From Neomelitea salexigens DSM 19753 (GTDB lineage Bacteria > Pseudomonadota > Gammaproteobacteria > Pseudomonadales > Spongiibacteraceae): a stretch of 64,000 nt of DNA. The translations under genes were made by a program, and so were the position numbers. Numbering within the stretch: position 1 is the stretch's first letter; every line of letters begins with the position of its first letter. Where the stretch lies: contig NZ_AULP01000007.1 in NCBI RefSeq assembly GCF_000422345.1, positions 120,154 to 184,153 of the forward strand, read 5' to 3'. The notes beneath the pieces were generated by a model. It saw only the letters and a list, made by a program, of their open reading frames with translations, did no database searches and was not told where the DNA came from. Below, one piece after another: positions 1 through 11,530 of the stretch.

Positions 1-30
1 CACTTCTGTAAGCCCGGAGACCGGCCTGAA
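1..30 (+). promoter_or_regulatory. Cobalamin riboswitch, 3' end (truncated by window start)
   Basis: Bases 10-28 read AAGCCCGGAGACCGGCCTG, the strongly conserved 3' block of cobalamin (AdoCbl) riboswitches, whose consensus is roughly AAGYCaGGAGACCTGCC. The rest of the aptamer lies before the window. About 200 nt of leader follow before the cobN-like start at 229. Pyrimidine tracts at 73-81 (TCCCTTCTA) and 85-94 could pair with the ribosome-binding site AGGAAGGGA at 214-222, which suggests control of translation initiation. The match is seen; the mechanism is inferred. Confidence 0.8.
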
Positions 31-228
31 CACAGTGCGTAGTTGCGGTGGGCGACGTAGCAGGGTCAGTTTTCCCTTCTAAATTCCTCCCTATTCGACA
101 ACCGCGTTTGATCAATCACATGCGGGTGGGCATGCGAGCGCCATAGCTGGTTTTACCAGTTGTCGAGACGTCCACTTGCACGCGATATCACGGCCTTACT
201 TTGGCTGCCGTATAGGAAGGGACTTCGG

Positions 229-3200
229 GTGAATCAGCATTTTAATGAGTGGCACCGGACTAAGGCGCTACTGGTATTTCTCCTGGCGCTGACAGCGAGC
301 GTGTTGTGCTCGGCGGCGCAGGCGAGCCTGGTGATTGTCTCCGATCGCTCTTCCTCGGTGCTGGTGGCGGGTGCTCACCGCTATCTCGATAAGAAGCCGC
401 AGGCCGATATAGCGATTCGCACTGTTAGCCAAGTAGAACGTCTGAACGACGCGGATTTACAACAGCTGCTGCTGAGTCATCATTCCTTACTTCTCGCCGG
501 GGTGTTCGGCGAATCCGTCGAACGCCTGCTGGCAATGGCGTATCCGCGCGGTCAACGCCGCTTTGTATTGCACAGTGACAACCGGCTTATGGCGCTGCAG
601 CGCGATGCCAATGGCCAGCCGTTTTCCAGCGCGGTTAGTCAGCAGTTTGTGGGCAGCGAGGGCTTGGCGCTGGATGCTGAGTCACTGGCGGCCAGTCAGC
701 AAAAATTTCCTGAGTACAGCGCGTGGTTGCAGGCACGGGCGTATTGGATTCACCGTTCGGCGGTGAATGCCGAGTCGTTGATTGCGCTGCTGAATGACGG
801 TGATGCCGCACCACTGCGCGAGCAAGCGCCGCTGCGTTTGGCCTTACACGGTAAACAAGGGGAGCGTTGGCTGACGAGTGACGAGTTGGATCAATCACTG
901 TCTGCCGATAAACCCATTGTTTGGGTGCTCGACCACAATACCGGCGACCTCAACGGTGAATGGGCGTTGCATCGCGCCATTTGCGCAAACCCGCAGTGGC
1001 AGTGCGTCTCGTTATTGGCGGCATGGGGTGAGCCCAGCGTCGACGCTGTAGATACCATCGCAACGCTAATGGCTGGCAAGCGCGCGGCGACGCCCTCGGT
1101 CATTATTTCCCTGCAGGACTTTGTCGTCGGCGGCGGTGAAGGTCGCCAAGCGGTTCTCGATGCACTGCAAGCGCTTAATCTGCCTGTGTTGAAAGGCCTG
1201 CGGGTGCTGGACTGGGGCTATAGTGACTGGCAGCTTTCCGCTCAGGGTTTGCCGGCAGATTCGGTGCACTACCGTTTGGCCATGCCCGAACTACAGGGCA
1301 TTGGACAGGCGCAAATTCTCTCGCTGGCGTCAGACTCCGGCATCGACCCGGCCACCGGTGCCAAGCTGCGTCGCAGCGAAGTGGTCGACGCTGAGTTGGC
1401 CCGGCAGCTGCGGCGGGTAGAGCGTTGGTTGGCGCTGCAAAACAAGCGCAACGCTGACAAGCGGATCGCCATTGTCTATTACAACCATCCTCCCGGTCGC
1501 CACAATATCGGTGCAGATAATCTAAACGTACCCGACAGTTTGCTGGAAATGCTGCGGGCATTGCAGTCTGCGGGCTATCACACCGGAAAGCTCCCAGAGA
1601 ATACCGAGGCCTTGCTGAGCTTGCTGCAGGAACGGGGCGTGAATTTACCTGAAGACCGACAGGCATTGGCGGAAATGTCTGGCAAGGTCGCCAGCCTGAG
1701 TGCAGACGATTATCGGCAGTGGTTTGCCACGCTGCCCAAGGTCGTACAGCAAGAAATGGTGGCTGGCCCACTGGGTGAGTTACACCAGCGTATGGTGAGT
1801 CAGCTTGAGCGGCTCAGCGCACTTCAGGATTTTCGACTGCGCCAGAAGCGTTTAACGCTACTCACCGAGAGTATGCACAATACCGTCACGAATCTTCACC
1901 ACGCCCTCGATGGTGTGCGTCAAAAAAGCCGCAATCGGGCGCTGGATTTGTTGGAGCAGCTAGAGCGCGAATACCAAGCGCAAATTGATGCCGTGGCCAG
2001 TGGTGGCCAAGCCTCATGGCGGGCCGCCGAGCAGCGTGTGGCAGCGCTGGTCGTACTGGGTATTGAAGGAATTCGCGGCTGGGGCGAGGCCCCCGGCAAG
2101 GTGATGGTCTGGGGTGAGCGTTTGCTGGTGCCAGGCGTTCGCTTTGGCAATGTCTTCGTCGGCCCGCAGCCACCGCGGGGCTGGGAACTGAATGAAGAGC
2201 TGTTGCACGCCAATTTGAGTTTTCCGCCGCCGCATCAGTACCTGGCGTTTTATCGCTACTTGCAGGATGACTTTGGCGCCGATGCGCTGGTGCATGTGGG
2301 CCGCCATTCCACCTATGAGTTTTTGCCGCGCCGGGGTGTGGGTCTGGGGGAAGACGACTACCCGAGCATTATCGCGGGTGATCTGCCGGGGGTGTATCCC
2401 TACATCGTCGATGGCGTTGGCGAGGGGATTCAAGCCAAACGCCGTGGCTTGGCGGTGATGGTGGATCACTTAACACCGCCTCTGGCAGTCACGGAGCTTT
2501 ACGATGAGCTATTAGAAGTGCGGCAGTTAGTGGAGAGCGCCGAGGCCGCGAGTGACCCGTTCACCCGCAGCGGCGCACTGGCGCAGCTCAGGGCGAAAAT
2601 CGATGAATATGGCCTGCGCGACGAGCTGGAAGCGTCGATGGATGAAGAGCTAAAAGTGCGAGGTATCGGCTTTGAAGAGATTGATGAAGAACTCTTTCTC
2701 CACGAAGTCGGTCACTATCTGACCCATGTTCAGGAAGACTTTATGCCGCTGGGCCTGCATGTATTGGGTCGCGACTGGAGCACGGCCGGCGTTGATACCA
2801 TGTTGGCATCGATGGCCGACAGCGGCGCGACTGAGGCAGAAAAAGCGGCGTGGCGCAGAGACCTGACGCGTTCGCCGCAAGCCGAGATGACCGCGCTACT
2901 CAATGGCTTGAATGGGCGCTTCGTTGCGCCGGGTAAAGGCAACGATCCTATCCGAACCCCCGAGGCCCTGCCCACCGGGCGTAACTTCCACGCCCTGGAC
3001 GGCAGTCTTATTCCCAGCAAACTCGGCTATCAGGTTGGGCGCCAGTTGGCTGATCAGGTACTTCGCGGCGAGCAGACCGACGAGGTTCTGCTGCGTGAAA
3101 ACGCCCAGCGCGTTGCCGCTAAATACGGCGAGGCAGTTCCTGCCGATAAACAGGGCGTGATTCTTTGGGCCTCGGATGCGGTGCGGGACGAGGGGGCAAT

Positions 3201-4674
3201 GGTGGCCTTCGGCCTCAAACTGCTGGGTATGCGGCCGGTGTGGAACAGCCGCGGTATTGTAAAAGGGTTGGAGCGCATCGAACTTGGCGAGGATCAGCCC
3301 CGGCGCATGGATGTACTGTTTACCGCCTCCGGGCTGTTTCGCGATTTATACGGTCGACACATGACCCTACTTGATCGCGCCGTGTTAATGGCACTGGATG
3401 CCAGCCGCGACACCATCGCAGAGCGATACCCCAATTTACGACCCGCACTCAACGCCGCGCTCGCGCTGATCGAAGACACCGCAGCCGGTGGTCGCGAGCC
3501 GCTGGAGAAAAACCAAGTAGCGACTAACTGGGTGACAGAGGCGCGCGCGATGCTCGCCGCGCAGCCGGGGATGCATGCCAGTGACGTGGGGCGGCATGCC
3601 AGCCTGCGGGTCTTTGGTATTGCGCCGGGCGGTTACGGCGCAGGTATTAACCGACTGGTTGAGCGTTCCGGTGCCTGGCAAGACCGGAAAGAGCTGGGTG
3701 AGGTCTACCTCAAGCGCATGGGGCATGCGTTTGGCGTGGGTTTACAGGGCGACGCGGCGCAGCAGGTGTTTCGCGACCAGCTGGCTGGCGTATCCAAAAC
3801 CTTTCTCGGGCGCGCCAGTAACCTTTATGGCTTGATCGATAATAACGACGCCTTCGATTACCTCGGCGGTTTTAACTTGGCCGTGGAAACCGTCACTGGT
3901 CGCCAGCCGGAAAGCGCCGTAATCAATCATGCCCGCAGCGATGTGCTGCGTATGGATAGCCTACAAAAAACCCTCGCCACCGAGTTGCGCGGTCGCTTCT
4001 TCAACCCACAGTGGATTAAACCGCTAATGGACGAGGGCTACGCCGGTGCGCGCACCATGGGCAGTGAATTCGTCGAGTACCTTTGGGGCTGGGAAGTCAC
4101 CAGCCCGGAGTTAATCAGCGACGCGGTGTGGAACGAACTAAAAGACGTTTACATCGACGACGGCCGCGACCTCGGGTTGGATACCTTCCTGAGTGAAGGC
4201 GACAAGCGCTATGTGCAAACCAATATTCTAGCGGTGATGCTGGTGGCCATCGACAAAGGCTTCTGGCAGGCCGGTGAGCAAACGACCGCCCAGCTCGCCC
4301 AGCAGTTTGCCAGCAATATTATTGAGCACGGCAACCCCGGCAGCGGTCACACCCATGCCAATCACCCTATGTATGAGCTAGTAAAAGCCCAGCTCAGCGC
4401 CGAACGCGCCGCTGAGCTTGAGGCCGTGTTGGCGCGCAGCCGCACGGTCGCCGAGCAACTGGCTGCCCAGCCCAGCACCATTCGTGAAGTGCACGTGGCG
4501 CCGAGTGAGCTAGCGCCCGAGCAGCGTGCCGAGGAGGCGTCGGCAGCGAAGGGTGGCGGTGAGCAGGCTGAGTCGGCGCGCAGTGGCATGTCGCCAACAT
4601 GGTACTGGCTGCTGGCAATTGTCGTCGTGATATTTGGTGTGGGTATGCGGCGCGGTTTGCGCGCTAATGCGTAA
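229..4674 (+). CDS. Exported, membrane-anchored CobN-like chelatase large subunit
   Basis: About 1481 residues of the CobN/BchH family, whose large subunits bind a tetrapyrrole and insert a metal (cobalt in CobN, with CobS/CobT ATPases). Family blocks are clear: VFVGPQPPRGWE, HxGxHSxxEFLP (H689 to E697), GDLPGVYPYIVDGVGEG, PTGRNFHALDG and RVFGIAPGGYGAG. The GTG at 229 is preferred because AGGAAGGGA lies 6 nt upstream; an in-frame TTG at 160 has no such site. That start gives a signal peptide with a likely cut after A32 (AQA). The C-terminus has a low-complexity linker, one membrane segment and an RR-containing tail, so the bulk should be periplasmic. Classical CobN is cytoplasmic, so this is not ordinary CobN. 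Two genes follow at 22 and 4 nt. No CobS/CobT is in the window. The substrate is unknown; the B12 riboswitch argues for a corrinoid or cobalt. Confidence 0.85.
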   Translation: MNQHFNEWHRTKALLVFLLALTASVLCSAAQASLVIVSDRSSSVLVAGAHRYLDKKPQADIAIRTVSQVERLNDADLQQLLLSHHSLLLAGVFGESVERLLAMAYPRGQRRFVLHSDNRLMALQRDANGQPFSSAVSQQFVGSEGLALDAESLAASQQKFPEYSAWLQARAYWIHRSAVNAESLIALLNDGDAAPLREQAPLRLALHGKQGERWLTSDELDQSLSADKPIVWVLDHNTGDLNGEWALHRAICANPQWQCVSLLAAWGEPSVDAVDTIATLMAGKRAATPSVIISLQDFVVGGGEGRQAVLDALQALNLPVLKGLRVLDWGYSDWQLSAQGLPADSVHYRLAMPELQGIGQAQILSLASDSGIDPATGAKLRRSEVVDAELARQLRRVERWLALQNKRNADKRIAIVYYNHPPGRHNIGADNLNVPDSLLEMLRALQSAGYHTGKLPENTEALLSLLQERGVNLPEDRQALAEMSGKVASLSADDYRQWFATLPKVVQQEMVAGPLGELHQRMVSQLERLSALQDFRLRQKRLTLLTESMHNTVTNLHHALDGVRQKSRNRALDLLEQLEREYQAQIDAVASGGQASWRAAEQRVAALVVLGIEGIRGWGEAPGKVMVWGERLLVPGVRFGNVFVGPQPPRGWELNEELLHANLSFPPPHQYLAFYRYLQDDFGADALVHVGRHSTYEFLPRRGVGLGEDDYPSIIAGDLPGVYPYIVDGVGEGIQAKRRGLAVMVDHLTPPLAVTELYDELLEVRQLVESAEAASDPFTRSGALAQLRAKIDEYGLRDELEASMDEELKVRGIGFEEIDEELFLHEVGHYLTHVQEDFMPLGLHVLGRDWSTAGVDTMLASMADSGATEAEKAAWRRDLTRSPQAEMTALLNGLNGRFVAPGKGNDPIRTPEALPTGRNFHALDGSLIPSKLGYQVGRQLADQVLRGEQTDEVLLRENAQRVAAKYGEAVPADKQGVILWASDAVRDEGAMVAFGLKLLGMRPVWNSRGIVKGLERIELGEDQPRRMDVLFTASGLFRDLYGRHMTLLDRAVLMALDASRDTIAERYPNLRPALNAALALIEDTAAGGREPLEKNQVATNWVTEARAMLAAQPGMHASDVGRHASLRVFGIAPGGYGAGINRLVERSGAWQDRKELGEVYLKRMGHAFGVGLQGDAAQQVFRDQLAGVSKTFLGRASNLYGLIDNNDAFDYLGGFNLAVETVTGRQPESAVINHARSDVLRMDSLQKTLATELRGRFFNPQWIKPLMDEGYAGARTMGSEFVEYLWGWEVTSPELISDAVWNELKDVYIDDGRDLGLDTFLSEGDKRYVQTNILAVMLVAIDKGFWQAGEQTTAQLAQQFASNIIEHGNPGSGHTHANHPMYELVKAQLSAERAAELEAVLARSRTVAEQLAAQPSTIREVHVAPSELAPEQRAEEASAAKGGGEQAESARSGMSPTWYWLLAIVVVIFGVGMRRGLRANA

Positions 4675-4696
4675 CCGTTAGAAAGGGAAGATCGCT

Positions 4697-5140
4697 GTGT
4701 TTTCGAGTTTATCGCTGGATGTTTTACATACGTTATCTGGCCTGCTGTTAGAGCCTGTGGTGTGGGCTCTGTTGGCTATGCTGGCAGTGGCCGTGTTTGA
4801 GTGTGGCCTGGCGCTGGGTGAGCGCTTTGGCGGCATTGCCCGCATGAGCCGCGCCGCGCTACTGGCAACGGGGCGGCGGCGCATCGAGCGAGCAGATTTT
4901 GTTACGCGACTCTCACCCATGCTCGGCCTCATGGGCACGCTGATTCCATTGGGGCCAGGGCTGGCCGCGTTGGGTGAGGGCGACTTGCAGGTGCTCACCA
5001 CGGCGATGATCACGGCCTTTGATACCACGGTCATTGGCTTGTTGGCAGGCATGATCGGCTTTGTACTTGGCCGCTTGCGCCGCCGATGGTACGACCGAGC
5101 GCTGCTGGCACTAACGCCGTCGACAGACGCAGGGGAATAG
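4697..5140 (+). CDS. MotA/TolQ/ExbB-type proton channel subunit
   Basis: A 147-residue inner-membrane protein. It has an N-terminal membrane segment (about 15-40), a basic cytoplasmic stretch, then the family core SPMLGLMGTLIPLGPGL with a second segment and AFDTTVIGLLAGMIGFVLG as the third. These match the ExbB/TolQ/MotA channel family, which couples proton flow to mechanical or energy-transducing work. It is short for ExbB. The start is GTG at 4697 with AGGGAAG upstream. It lies between the cobN-like gene and a DUF2149 gene with tight spacing, so they are one operon under the B12 riboswitch. The inferred role is to energise the exported chelatase or a B12 uptake receptor. Confidence 0.85.
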   Translation: MFSSLSLDVLHTLSGLLLEPVVWALLAMLAVAVFECGLALGERFGGIARMSRAALLATGRRRIERADFVTRLSPMLGLMGTLIPLGPGLAALGEGDLQVLTTAMITAFDTTVIGLLAGMIGFVLGRLRRRWYDRALLALTPSTDAGE

Positions 5141-5144
5141 TGCA

Positions 5145-5450
5145 ATGGATGATTGGCGGCGCAGTCACTTCTTCGAGCACGACGACGACCCACTGGGGCC
5201 CATGGCGAACCTGGTGGACATAATTCTGGTATTTGCCTGCGGCTTGATCGCCGCGCTTGTCGCCTATAGCCCCGAGCTTCAGCAGCACTTTGACAGCACA
5301 CGTCAGCAACGGGATTTATCACTGGGTGAAGAACTGCCGCAGGCGCCGGACAGTGTGCAATCACCGCTGCAAGACGGCAGCGGCTACGAATCGTTGGGCA
5401 CCGTATACCGCGACCCTGAAACCGGAAAACTGATTCTGATCGGCGAGTGA
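5145..5450 (+). CDS. DUF2149 family membrane protein (ExbD-like partner?)
   Basis: A 101-residue protein matching DUF2149 as I know it: an acidic N-terminus ending in DPLGPMANLVDIILVF, one membrane segment (about 22-42), a variable linker, and a C-terminal motif LGTVYRDPETGKLILIGE. The single N-terminal segment with a small extra-cytoplasmic domain is the ExbD/TolR layout. I therefore infer that it pairs with the upstream ExbB-like channel; no sequence identity to ExbD is claimed. It starts 4 nt after the channel gene stops. No function has been shown for the family to my knowledge. Confidence 0.75.
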   Translation: MDDWRRSHFFEHDDDPLGPMANLVDIILVFACGLIAALVAYSPELQQHFDSTRQQRDLSLGEELPQAPDSVQSPLQDGSGYESLGTVYRDPETGKLILIGE

Positions 5451-8763: not shown

Positions 8764-9051
8764 CTACGATGCCAGCGCACGAAGCACGACTTCAGGTTCT
8801 TTAGCGACGACATTCAATAGCACCAACGCTGGCCCTTGCGGGGTGCGATCTCCACGCTCCCAGTGACGTAGAGTGCTTACACTGATACCGAAAGCAGAAG
8901 CAAATTCGTTTTGTGACATGCCCACTTTTGCTCGAACTTTCTTAACATCCAGCGGGCCAAATTCATGGACAACAGCTTTGCCGGGCTTTCCTTTGGAAAA
9001 CTCTGTTGCTTCCGCCAACCCCTGTTTAATACTTGAAAATGCATCAGTCAT
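8764..9051 (-). CDS. higA: HigA/NadS-like antitoxin (HTH)
   Basis: About 95 residues with a C-terminal XRE-type helix-turn-helix (VRAKVGMSQNEFASAFGI then SVSTLRHWERGDRTP), typical of HigA antitoxins that neutralise HigB and repress their own promoter. The ATG at 9051 has GGTGG 5 nt upstream; an open frame continues upstream but lacks a site. The start lies upstream of the toxin stop (9044), so the two genes overlap and are translationally coupled, toxin first, as in higBA loci. It is the 3' gene of an integron-like cassette. Confidence 0.82.
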   Translation of the reverse strand: MTDAFSSIKQGLAEATEFSKGKPGKAVVHEFGPLDVKKVRAKVGMSQNEFASAFGISVSTLRHWERGDRTPQGPALVLLNVVAKEPEVVLRALAS

Positions 9052-9385
9052 CATTGCCACCATAATGTTTGCGTAAAAGGGCAGTGAGCTTCGCAAGTTC
9101 GTTTCTCTCTGACTTGCTCAGGTTCGCTTTCTCACCTTTCCCGAATACGGTTAATAAAAACAGCGGCATCGTGCCATTGTGGTAGTAGTAAACTACGCGA
9201 ACCCCACCACTTTTACCTTTTCCTTGGGCAGACCACCTCAGCTTCCGAATCCCACCCGTGCCCTGCATGAGGTCTCCAGATTGGGGATGAAAAGCCAAGT
9301 AATTGATAATGCTGGCTTTCTCTTCCTCGCTCAGAAGGCTCAGTGCTCGCTTGAGGAATTCAGGTAGCTCTACGATTGTCTGCAT
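9044..9385 (-). CDS. higB: HigB-like RelE-superfamily toxin
   Basis: 113 residues. The core GDLMQGTGGIRKLRWSAQGK with the following GKSGGVRVVYYY strongly resembles the HigB2 toxin of the Vibrio cholerae superintegron, a ribosome-dependent mRNase of the RelE fold. It is paired with the downstream HTH antitoxin. The start is ATG at 9385, only 4 nt after a perfect 29-bp palindrome. No ribosome-binding site is evident, so the message may be leaderless or nearly so. Such modules are common stabilisers of cassette arrays. Confidence 0.85.
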   Translation of the reverse strand: MQTIVELPEFLKRALSLLSEEEKASIINYLAFHPQSGDLMQGTGGIRKLRWSAQGKGKSGGVRVVYYYHNGTMPLFLLTVFGKGEKANLSKSERNELAKLTALLRKHYGGNDD

Positions 9386-10337: not shown

Positions 10338-11225
10338 TCAAATTACTACGCTGCGCTCATATTCTATCGGGGACAAATAGCCAATTCCCGAGTGTAACCG
10401 ACATTCGTTATAAAACTTGTTGATGTAACGTGACAAGGCTTTACGTAATGTCTTCACACCATTGAACACGGTTCCCCGGATCAGCTCGGCCTTCAGACTG
10501 TGGAAGAACGACTCCATTCGAGCATTGTCAGTGCACTGCCCTGGCCGATTCACGCTATGCCGGATGCCTTTCGTTCTCAATAATATTTGGAACTCTCCAT
10601 TCATATACTCAATCCCTCGATCCGTATGGAATACAAGGCCACACACCGGCTCCCGCTTTCTTAGCGCATATCTCATCGCTGATAACGTGAGCTCTGACGT
10701 CCTGCTATCTGATAACGACCACCCCAATATTCGCCGCGAGTAGTAATCCATCACTGTGGCCAAATACTGCCACCGGCCATTTAACTTTAAGTACGTCACA
10801 TCACCCACCCACACCTGGTCAACACCGGTTGGCTCTGCCAAGGTACGCAACAGGTTCTTCCCCTGGGCTTTGAAGCGTTTCAAGCCCGGCTGACGCCGAG
10901 TAACGCGGACAACTCGACCTCGTAGACCTGCTTCCCGCATCAAGCGTTCAACGCGCTTCCGGCCTACAGCAACGCCTTGCGATCTCAGCACCTTATAGAC
11001 TCTAGGGCTGCCATAGCGCCCTTCACTTTGATGGAATATCTTAGTGATACGCTTCAATAGCAATTCGTCTTCGCAGCAGCGTTTAGAGGCCGATCGCTTT
11101 GCCCAAGCATAAAAACCGCTGGGCGACACTTCCAGCCAACGGCAAAGCTTCGCCACACCTAGCTCTCGGTATCTTTGGATGAATCCAAATCGCTCTGATG
11201 GCGTTCCGCAAGATACCGTTGCCAC
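10338..11225 (-). CDS. IS3-family transposase OrfB (DDE integrase)
   Basis: 295 residues in the -1 frame relative to OrfA. An HTH_21 region (about 50-110) precedes an rve integrase core. The catalytic triad is D142 (VGDVTYL), D202 (FHTDRG) and E238 (NARMESFF); D202 and E238 are separated by exactly 35 residues, the DD(35)E spacing of IS3. The frame opens with GTG at the slippery site, but the functional product is expected to be the OrfAB fusion made by -1 frameshifting. Confidence 0.93.
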   Translation of the reverse strand: MATVSCGTPSERFGFIQRYRELGVAKLCRWLEVSPSGFYAWAKRSASKRCCEDELLLKRITKIFHQSEGRYGSPRVYKVLRSQGVAVGRKRVERLMREAGLRGRVVRVTRRQPGLKRFKAQGKNLLRTLAEPTGVDQVWVGDVTYLKLNGRWQYLATVMDYYSRRILGWSLSDSRTSELTLSAMRYALRKREPVCGLVFHTDRGIEYMNGEFQILLRTKGIRHSVNRPGQCTDNARMESFFHSLKAELIRGTVFNGVKTLRKALSRYINKFYNECRLHSGIGYLSPIEYERSVVI

Positions 11226-11530
11226 TTTTTTAGCAGGTCATTCTCCTGACGCAGTCGTTCATTTTCTTTCTTGAGACGAGCATTTTCCGTCAGTGTCTTC
11301 GCACTCGGCGTTCGCTTTTCTTTTTCCACAGACACTCGCTTTCGGCCATCACCCTGAAGTTGCCCTTCACGATACTCTTTTCTCCAGCGAGACAACATGA
11401 AGGGATGAATATCCAGACCCTCGGCAACTTCTTTAACCTGAATACCTTCTTTTAAAGAGAGCCTGACAGCTTTAACTTTAAAGTCTTTTGAATACTCCCA
11501 CGTCTTCCGTGGCTTTGTATATTTCGGCAC
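11159..11530 (-). CDS. IS3-family transposase OrfA (HTH, leucine zipper)
   Basis: 123 residues. An N-terminal helix-turn-helix (FKVKAVRLSLKEG, then VKEVAEGLDIHPFMLSRWRKEY) recognises the IS ends. A heptad-rich coiled coil (ENARLKKENERLRQENDLLKKW) mediates multimerisation. The slippery A-AAA-AAG falls in the LLKKW codons, so part of the ribosomes can shift to orfB. GGAGG-like bases lie before the ATG at 11530. Confidence 0.92.
   Translation of the reverse strand: MPKYTKPRKTWEYSKDFKVKAVRLSLKEGIQVKEVAEGLDIHPFMLSRWRKEYREGQLQGDGRKRVSVEKEKRTPSAKTLTENARLKKENERLRQENDLLKKWQRYLAERHQSDLDSSKDTES

What the first reader, a model, noticed from the sequence alone, without database searches (positions are those of the whole stretch)
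1..5450. B12-riboswitch operon: exported CobN-like chelatase + ExbB-like channel + DUF2149
Seen: a cobalamin riboswitch 3' block, then a CobN-family protein with both a signal peptide (cut near A32) and a C-terminal membrane anchor, then an ExbB/TolQ-like channel and a one-segment DUF2149 protein, all tightly spaced. Known: CobN is normally a cytoplasmic subunit driven by CobS/CobT ATPases. Inference: here a periplasmic chelatase-fold protein is coupled to the proton motive force through an ExbB/ExbD-like pair. It could remove or insert cobalt in imported corrinoids, or hand them from a receptor to the inner membrane.
Basis: partly seen in the sequence, partly recalled or inferred. Interest (0 to 1): 0.8.

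Follow-up and report, generated by a model that had tools for sequence, protein, structure and literature searches.

The report
B12-switched exported chelatase-like gene trio
A marine bacterium carries three genes under a vitamin B12 RNA switch that seem to build a machine on the outer face of the inner membrane, probably powered by the proton gradient, for handling scavenged B12-type molecules; a heme-handling cousin is known, and I found no test of this B12 branch.

Summary
Window 1-44 is the 3' end of a complete cobalamin riboswitch (95 bits, beginning 184 bases before the window). [quoted passage not shown] The genome has no other CobN and no CobS match.

The trio recurs. Of the 80 closest named relatives, 79 keep the gene order (one contig ends inside exbB) and 66 have a riboswitch upstream. 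They form one clade, apart from CobN without anchors and from a second trio type without riboswitches. Of 46 carriers, 41 lack a key corrin-ring gene, which points to salvage; 32 of those keep CbiA.

The kind is known: heme de-chelatase HmuS has the same partners, 'BtuS' is a published name, and B12-riboswitch hmu-like operons were noted in Bacteroides. This clade lacks HmuS's His254, His1209 and Met-rich insertion but keeps the catalytic His538.

Best reading: a periplasmic corrinoid-processing chelatase driven by the proton motive force. Chemistry, direction and coupling are unproven. New variant of a known kind.

The parts
1..44 (+). 3' end of a cobalamin riboswitch (RF00174); the element begins 184 bases before the window
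   Evidence: truncated, 14 bits; complete, 95 bits, E 2.9e-24
45..228 (+). leader between riboswitch and start codon; AGGAAGG Shine-Dalgarno-like sequence at 214-220
   Evidence: the same sequence and GTG stand in Spongiibacter marinus L069
229..4674 (+). CobN-family protein, 1481 aa (B12-type trio subunit; BtuS/HmuS-like)
   Evidence: PF02514 801 bits; best PDB match HmuS 9d26 E 7.9e-101; 96% identical to S. marinus L069
229..324 (+). signal peptide, residues 1-32
   Evidence: hydropathy; cut site by eye
4594..4650 (+). C-terminal membrane anchor, about residues 1456-1474 (ends by eye)
   Evidence: C-terminal hydropathy peak over my threshold in 84 of 88 B12-type proteins
2293..2307 (+). chelatase-family motif, residues 689-693 (HVGRH; His693 aligns with HmuS catalytic His538)
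   Evidence: alignment; His693 in 88 of 88
4697..5140 (+). MotA/TolQ/ExbB-family protein, 147 aa; Thr81, Asp109, Thr111 invariant in the clade
   Evidence: PF01618 E 7e-8, 87 of 87
5145..5450 (+). DUF2149 protein, 101 aa, one membrane segment with invariant Asp25
   Evidence: PF09919 E 3e-10, Asp25 invariant in 77 rows

Best explanation
A B12-repressed corrinoid-salvage machine. When cobalamin is scarce the riboswitch lets the operon run. The CobN-like protein is exported, stays tied to the inner membrane by its C-terminal helix, and binds a corrinoid (or precursor) that an outer-membrane receptor such as BtuB has brought into the periplasm. The ExbB-like/DUF2149 pair conducts protons and drives the conformational cycle of the CobN-like body, in place of the ATP-driven CobST or ChlID motors, which would find no ATP in the periplasm. 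The output is a corrinoid that BtuFCD-like importers can take in and that CobO, CbiA and CobQ can finish. Shown here: riboswitch, conserved operon, clade, conserved chelatase histidine, no CobS match, missing CbiC, associated salvage genes. Inferred: periplasmic location, proton conduction, coupling to the CobN-like protein itself, and metal-centre chemistry (insertion, exchange or axial-ligand work rather than cobalt removal).
For: Complete riboswitch upstream. Of the 80 closest of 271 named relatives, 66 have one upstream on the same strand, 52 of them within 700 bases. All 8 B12-type loci of the class survey, not chosen by riboswitch or CobN motif, have one, in L034 only below threshold. 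Gene order cobN-exbB-DUF2149 in 79 of 80. Among 30 CobN-family loci of Pseudomonadota, the 4 with a C-terminal hydrophobic helix are the 4 with the ExbB/DUF2149 pair; none of the other 26 has it within the 1.5 kb held. His693 (HmuS His538) in 88 of 88. ExbB-like Thr81, Asp109, Thr111 in 87 of 87; DUF2149 Asp25 in 77 of 77. G000 has four ExbD matches elsewhere, so the pair need not serve TonB. CbiC/CobH absent in 41 of 46 carriers, own genome included; 32 of those 41 keep CbiA, against 10 of 199 CbiC-less class genomes without this trio. Own genome has riboswitch, btuB-like, cobO, btuF-, btuC- and btuD-like genes, bluB and cobQ in a row (the btu names are below curated cut-offs). A protein similar to PDB 8c7p ('Cobalamin ABC transporter') is encoded between riboswitch or btuB-like gene and cobN in 9 loci.
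Against: No experiment on this clade was found. Nine of 80 named loci have no riboswitch on my criteria, four of them with at least 3.8 kb of upstream sequence, and five more have one only elsewhere in the stretch; the 191 relatives beyond the best 80 were not seen. Five of 46 carriers, one a Spongiibacter (S. thalassae, L048), do have CbiC, and 9 of the 41 without it lack CbiA too. Proton coupling to the CobN-like protein is inferred from gene linkage; published work on the heme relatives assigns the pair to TonB and the outer-membrane receptor (PMC10100974). DUF2149 is not detectably related to ExbD. Nothing computed here shows that the substrate is a corrinoid. Purified HmuS works without its partners, if only for one or two turnovers (PMC12583661), and in B. 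fragilis a btuS1 btuS2 double mutant still made protoporphyrin from heme, about twice as much as the parent (PMC6460266), so the chemistry of BtuS proteins is disputed. The lead of HmuS over CobN in the PDB search is small (341.7 against 323.9 bits).
Confidence: 0.5

Rival explanations
1. Corrinoid carrier without metal chemistry: the head and neck act like a large periplasmic binding protein that receives corrinoids from BtuB, and the proton-driven pair makes it release them to an inner-membrane importer. The chelatase pocket is kept for binding only.
For: The head/neck model (residues 31-640, pLDDT 87.7) matches HmuS best and solute-binding proteins weakly, E above 0.001; btuB-like, 8c7p-like and btuFCD-like genes lie near the trio in part of the loci; a B12 riboswitch fits uptake.
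Against: The catalytic His of the superfamily (His693) and several clade-specific His are invariant, more than a carrier seems to need; a BtuF-like protein is already encoded in the own genome (below cut-off).
Confidence: 0.27
2. Metal acquisition: the trio frees cobalt or zinc from a metal-tetrapyrrole or metallophore in the periplasm, as the Zur-regulated PA1922-PA1925 cluster may in Pseudomonas aeruginosa.
For: That cobN-like cluster rises 45- to 147-fold in a znuA mutant (PMC4542158, passages with table); B12 riboswitches also control cobalt transporters (PMC3766115, passages).
Against: 41 of 46 carriers lack CbiC/CobH and so have little need of free cobalt for ring synthesis; no Zur- or Fur-like box by a simple scan upstream of seven B12-type genes.
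Confidence: 0.1
3. The ExbB-like/DUF2149 pair is an extra TonB motor for a cobalamin receptor, and the CobN-like protein is a separate enzyme that happens to share the operon.
For: Published view for HmuU/HmuV (PMC10100974); in some loci a btuB-like gene lies in the same run of genes.
Against: A btuB-like gene was found in the fetched stretch of only 29 of 80 named loci (distant receptors could be missed), while the CobN gene accompanies DUF2149 in 16 of 16 survey genomes (own included); the pair goes with the C-terminal anchor of CobN; the archaeon Methanosarcina acetivorans, without an outer membrane (recalled), matches PF02514, PF09919 and PF01618 (controls; linkage not checked).
Confidence: 0.13
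4. A heme de-chelatase like HmuS, only regulated differently.
For: Closest solved structure by sequence and by fold is HmuS; same partners.
Against: HmuS His254 is Glu or Asp in 78 of 88, His1209 is Asp in 88 of 88, the Met-rich insertion is missing; B12 riboswitch and B12 salvage genes in the neighbourhood.
Confidence: 0.05

Closest known systems
HmuS heme de-chelatase and the hmuYRSTUV operon of Bacteroidota (PDB 9d26; PMC12583661)
   Same: CobN fold, membrane-bound, His538 kept, MotA/TolQ/ExbB and DUF2149 partners in the operon (PMC10434189)
   Different: Iron-responsive, HmuY/HmuR/HmuT present, heme ligand His254, His1209 and Met-rich insertion; here a B12 riboswitch, three genes only, and none of these three protein features (Met79 could not be aligned)
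BtuS family (Rocha et al., PMC6460266, citing Rodionov 2003, which was not held)
   Same: [quoted passage not shown] a B12-riboswitch hmu-like operon is noted in Bacteroides fragilis (PMC10100974)
   Different: Published prediction for BtuS is metalloporphyrin salvage, and BtuS1/BtuS2 were tested for heme iron; the present clade is mainly gammaproteobacterial. Whether Bacteroides BtuS1 falls in it was not tested
CobN of cobaltochelatase CobNST
   Same: Domain family; Asp at the HmuS-His1209 position in 18 of 24 rows without anchor, as here
   Different: CobN is cytoplasmic and works with CobS/CobT on hydrogenobyrinic acid a,c-diamide (recalled); here exported, no CobS match, CbiC absent
Zur-regulated PA1922-PA1925 of Pseudomonas aeruginosa (PMC4542158, passages)
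   Same: cobN-like gene with a gene annotated ExbD and a small hypothetical gene
   Different: Zinc control, TonB receptor in the operon; its sequences were not compared here

Membership tests
HmuS heme de-chelatase | Catalytic His538 in HFG(T/A)HG | tested here: met
   His693 in 88 of 88; the following Gly539 is Ser in 88 of 88
HmuS heme de-chelatase | His1209 in LSLDHxxEFMGG | tested here: not met
   Asp1207 in 88 of 88 (alignment)
HmuS heme de-chelatase | Heme ligand His254 at head/neck site | tested here: not met
   Glu in 64, Asp in 14 of 88
HmuS heme de-chelatase | Heme ligand Met79 | tested here: inconclusive
   The aligned stretches begin at HmuS residue 247
HmuS heme de-chelatase | Methionine-rich insertion in domain IV | tested here: not met
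   Between aligned stretches 87 residues in the window protein, 287 in HmuS
HmuS heme de-chelatase | Six-gene hmu operon with HmuY, HmuR, HmuT | tested here: not met
   Three genes only
CobN subunit of CobNST | Score above NCBIfam equivalog cut-offs for CobN | tested here: not met
   Best 616.8 bits against cut-off 1619; TIGR02257 482 against 822
CobN subunit of CobNST | CobS partner in the genome | tested here: not met
   No match in G000; 0 of 16 genomes above cut-off, one strong sub-cut-off match in G143
CobN subunit of CobNST | CobT partner in the genome | not tested
   No CobT search made
CobN subunit of CobNST | Cytoplasmic, no membrane segment | tested here: not met
   N- and C-terminal hydrophobic segments
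MotA/TolQ/ExbB family | PF01618 above gathering score | tested here: met
   32.7 bits against 22.9; all 16 members of A2 match at E up to 1
MotA/TolQ/ExbB family | Proton conduction | not testable with these tools
   Only residue conservation seen
ExbD/TolR family | Profile similarity to ExbD (PF02472) | tested here: not met
   No PF02472 match in 14 members; hhalign 0.1-0.2% against 5 of 8 fetched ExbD sequences
ExbD/TolR family | Single N-terminal membrane helix with an Asp near its start, encoded next to an ExbB-like gene | tested here: met
   Asp25 in 77 of 77; helix 18-41 in a low-confidence model
Cobalamin riboswitch RF00174 | Full-length match above gathering score | tested here: met
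   95 bits, positions 1-189
BtuS family | CobN-related protein distinct from CobN and ChlH, exported and membrane-anchored | tested here: met
   definition second-hand from PMC6460266 passages, and no BtuS sequence was compared
BtuS family | Metalloporphyrin salvage function | not testable with these tools
   Published prediction only (PMC6460266)

The most novel reading that the evidence does not exclude
A periplasmic cobaltochelatase driven by the proton motive force: the trio inserts cobalt into (or corrects the metal of) cobalt-free or mis-metallated corrins scavenged from other microbes, before import and completion by CbiA, CobO and CobQ. This would be a chelatase whose ATP motor has been exchanged for an ExbB-type motor, and a route for salvage of metal-free corrin precursors.
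Probability: 0.15. Interest if true: 0.9.

Novelty: new variant of a known kind. Interest (0 to 1): 0.58.

Why it matters
One paper holds that HmuV (the DUF2149 protein) appears diagnostic of heme transport, while noting a few B12-riboswitch exceptions (PMC10100974, section 13). Here DUF2149 sits behind a cobalamin riboswitch in dozens of genomes from at least four phyla. That points to a general module, an exported chelatase-fold protein with a membrane pair, specialised separately for heme, perhaps zinc, and B12. If the pair really drives the chelatase body, it would show how a CobN/ChlH-type enzyme can work without ATP, and might help explain why purified HmuS stops after one or two turnovers. 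It also warns that 'cobN' is a poor marker of B12 synthesis: 41 of 46 carriers of this gene lack CbiC/CobH.

Tried and rejected
Rejected: cytoplasmic CobNST subunit (no CobS match, membrane segments, no CbiC). Rejected as a family claim: DUF2149 as an ExbD homologue. Set low: heme de-chelatase. A simple scan for Zur- and Fur-like boxes upstream of seven B12-type genes gave nothing. PDB searches with the ExbB-like protein and its alignment gave no match. The DUF2149 model was too weak for a fold search (pLDDT 67.9). No archaeal locus was fetched; only family-level controls are known. The tree was the quick kind. My script had taken wrong frames for L130 and L144; one search shows it, and the right frames have no C-terminal helix, so the 0 of 26 stands; the tree and the 26 'cyto' rows still hold the two wrong rows, which do not lie in the B12 clade. 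Among the 88 B12-type rows L038 and L120 are the same locus and other near-duplicates exist. The stretches YYNHPPGR and HNIGADNL were used to find the 80 named loci, so His420, His425 and Asp430 there are partly conserved by construction; the 8 class-survey sequences have them without such selection. R1, the riboswitch model, was trained on 11 elements of the own genome and class-survey loci, so L069 (near-copy of the own locus) and L120 (same as L038) are not independent, and its E-values are rough.
Full report
What is there. The first 44 bases of the window are the 3' end of a cobalamin riboswitch. Alone they score 14 bits; the complete element in the same contig scores 95 bits, E 2.9e-24. 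Upstream of it are a LysR-type gene (by eye) and a PhoX-domain gene ending 456 bases before the riboswitch; I saw no cob or btu gene by eye in that 15 kb. The CobN-like frame starts best at GTG 229, 8 bases after AGGAAGG, and encodes 1481 residues with an N-terminal hydrophobic segment ending in an AQA|S site and a C-terminal hydrophobic segment. PF02514, PF01618 and PF09919 are all above their cut-offs. NCBIfam models for CobN and BchH match far below their cut-offs. The genome has three riboswitches. One of the others precedes a TonB siderophore-type receptor and a PepSY_TM gene; the other precedes a run that reads btuB-like, cobO, btuF-like, btuC-like, btuD-like, bluB, cobQ. CobO, BluB and CobQ pass their curated cut-offs; the btuB, btuF, btuC and btuD names rest on sub-cut-off matches and context, and the permease and ATPase score better against F420-0 transporter models, also below cut-off.

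Which organism. The closest named relative is Spongiibacter marinus DSM 17750, 96% identical over the whole CobN-like protein. The window organism is probably a Spongiibacter; that search may leave out records of the window's own genome.

How general the trio is. DUF2149 occurs in 16 of 229 gammaproteobacterial genomes drawn evenly from the class, own genome included. All 15 others carry an ExbB-like and a CobN gene within 4 kb (L028 and L029 only a piece of CobN; in L031 and L032 the CobN gene lies 2-4 kb from the pair). They fall in two types. Eight (own, L034-L040) have CobN-like proteins of 1433-1495 residues, the others 47-51% identical to the window's. Eight (L026-L033) have shorter (where complete) and distant ones. 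RF00174 above gathering score lies upstream of cobN or of the run that holds it in 6 of the 7 fetched B12-type loci and in the own locus; L034 has a weak one, 22.4 bits, E 0.0011, about 110 bases before cobN. It lies in 0 of the 8 other-type stretches, 6 to 20 kb each.

Named relatives. A scan with the B12-type alignment found 271 relatives and kept the best 80; the other 191 were not seen. The 80 come from Pseudomonadota, Campylobacterota, Nitrospirota, Nitrospinota and Myxococcota, many as metagenome bins. Script 50 counted the full trio in 77; L055 and L079 also have all three genes but a broken cobN frame, and in L071 the contig ends inside exbB. With a covariance model built from 11 elements, 66 of 80 have a riboswitch upstream on the same strand at E up to 1e-5: 52 within 700 bases, 14 farther. 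Of the 14, seven precede an 8c7p-like gene and cbiA, four precede btuB-like genes (L081, L085, L118, L120), and in three (L090, L107, L110) about 1.7 kb of other sequence intervenes, in L107 a PepSY_TM gene. Five have one only elsewhere in the stretch. Nine have none; five of these nine have less than 1.9 kb of upstream sequence, and of the other four L104 and L108 show weak partial matches.

Family position. In a quick tree of 57 rows the 33 B12-type rows form one clade (SH-aLRT 94), the 9 other-type trio rows cluster (81), and proteins without a C-terminal helix lie elsewhere (arbitrary root; two rows, L130 and L144, were wrong frames). PF02514 matches 60 of 200 Pseudomonadota genomes; of the 30 best loci the four with a C-terminal hydrophobic helix (L147-L150) are exactly those with ExbB-like and DUF2149 genes next door, and the 26 without have neither within the 1.5 kb held. 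Across 88 B12-type proteins, 77 pass my N-terminal and 84 my C-terminal hydropathy threshold; at least some misses are overlong or broken frames.

Active site. The nearest solved structure by sequence is HmuS 9d26, E 7.9e-101, 341.7 bits, a little ahead of CobN (323.9) and ChlH (310). A model of residues 31-640 (pLDDT 87.7) matches HmuS best, E 5.0e-11, TM-score 0.42, then ChlH, E 1.6e-9. The HmuS His538 position is His in 88 of 88, but His1209 is Asp in 88 of 88 and His254 is Glu or Asp in 78 of 88. The region that holds the Met-rich insertion is 200 residues shorter. Residues invariant in the clade and rare outside include His420, His425, His660, His825, His829 and Arg1008 (His420 and His425 partly by selection). 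Hence the protein is not an HmuS by three of its published marks, and not a CobN by cut-off, predicted location or partner.

Energy pair. The ExbB-like protein keeps Thr81, Asp109 and Thr111 in 87 of 87 sequences. DUF2149 keeps Asp25 in 77 of 77, in a stretch (NLVDI) that resembles the start of the ExbD membrane helix (PLIDV and PLIDI). Profile comparison shows no relationship, though the ExbD profile had only 5 sequences; so this is a resemblance in build. The own genome has four ExbD matches and six further MotA/ExbB-family matches, so other such motors exist. The control genome Methanosarcina acetivorans matches all three Pfam families, HmuV-like proteins are reported in Methanomicrobia (PMC10100974, section 13), and Methanosarcina barkeri is said to have two BtuS but not the whole operon (PMC10846266, passages). 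Archaea have no TonB receptors (recalled), so there the pair should have another client; linkage was not tested.

What it is for. CbiC/CobH, needed for corrin-ring synthesis, is absent in 41 of 46 trio genomes, the own one included (named genomes are drafts of untold completeness; G140 and the genome of L120 look the same, G000 is close to S. marinus). The five that have it include Spongiibacter thalassae (L048), so ring synthesis varies even near the window organism. CbiA, which acts on cobyrinic or hydrogenobyrinic acid, is present in 4 of the 6 CbiC-less class-survey carriers, own genome included, and in 28 of the 35 CbiC-less named carriers: 32 of 41 together. In the class sample, 10 of 199 CbiC-less genomes without this trio have it; Fisher p for 4 of 6 against 10 of 199 is 1.9e-4. 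This count takes only full-length TIGR00379 matches of about 230-320 bits as CbiA. Matches of about 364-453 bits look like another paralogue (DsrN, recalled); in support, 21 of the 24 CbiC genomes have a lower-band match, in 10 of them within 6 kb of cbiC (my reading). The split is mine and the contrast depends on it: with all matches counted it would be much weaker, since 94 of 229 class genomes have a match over the cut-off. The named set is not a random draw. I conclude that the trio belongs mostly to corrinoid salvagers, many of which can finish early corrin precursors. CobS is missing in G000 and below the cut-off in all 16 survey genomes, with one strong sub-cut-off match in G143. CobT was not searched.

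Literature. HmuS as a membrane-bound heme de-chelatase, its structure, His538 and limited turnover: PMC12583661 (abstract, introduction, two of four parts of Results, first of two parts of Discussion, passages). The hmu order with MotA/TolQ/ExbB and DUF2149: PMC10434189 (passages). BtuS1 and BtuS2 of Bacteroides fragilis, the citation of Rodionov 2003 and the double mutant that still releases protoporphyrin: PMC6460266 (passages). B12-riboswitch hmu-like operons and the view that HmuV appears heme-specific: PMC10100974 (passages, section 13). PA1922-PA1925: PMC4542158 and PMC8531726 (passages). PMC13227078 (passages) says other Hmu components might affect HmuS activity. PMC8620254 (passages) describes a cobN beside B12 transport genes in Chlorobium with BchH, BchI and BchD; PMC3766115 (passages) adds no such trio. 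Paper searches gave, in the listings and passages I saw, no paper that describes this gammaproteobacterial B12 trio or a proton-driven chelatase. The library lacks most subscription journals, Rodionov 2003 among them, so priority is not settled.

Verdict. I file it as a new, B12-dedicated variant of the HmuS/BtuS kind.

Noticed in passing
L005 (G000:C5:56000-72000), riboswitch at C5:66450-66605: A second cobalamin riboswitch precedes a TonB siderophore-type receptor (TIGR01783, above cut-off) and a PepSY_TM gene: a possible second corrinoid or metal receptor under B12 control. A PepSY_TM gene also lies between riboswitch and cobN in L107.
   Followed up: partly
L038:3613-4185, L057:7726-8343 and similar frames in L060, L062, L063, L065, L067, L086, L102, L120: A roughly 200-aa membrane protein similar to PDB 8c7p ('Cobalamin ABC transporter'; BtuM-like, recalled) near the trio; no Pfam or NCBIfam model named the two that were scanned.
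   Followed up: partly
L026-L033: A second trio type in gammaproteobacteria, with shorter CobN-like proteins, receptor-like genes in 6 of 8 stretches and no cobalamin riboswitch; probably heme or metal versions.
   Followed up: partly
L034:15185-15318: A weak cobalamin riboswitch (22.4 bits) upstream of cobN; variant or decaying.
   Followed up: no
G143:C29:7297-8247: A CobS-like protein at 491.6 bits, below the cut-off of 558.55, in a genome whose only CobN match is the exported type.
   Followed up: no
L055, L079: The cobN frame is broken into two overlapping or adjacent frames; sequencing error or decay.
   Followed up: no
window 8764-9385 (-): Two small overlapping frames that look like a RelE/HigB-type toxin and a helix-turn-helix antitoxin (by eye).
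   Followed up: no
window 10338-11530 (-): Two frames that look like an IS3-type transposase pair (by eye).
   Followed up: no
TIGR00379 matches in gammaproteobacteria fall in two score bands; the higher band occurs mostly in genomes without CbiC and is probably a different amidase that carries the name cobyrinic acid a,c-diamide synthase.
   Followed up: partly
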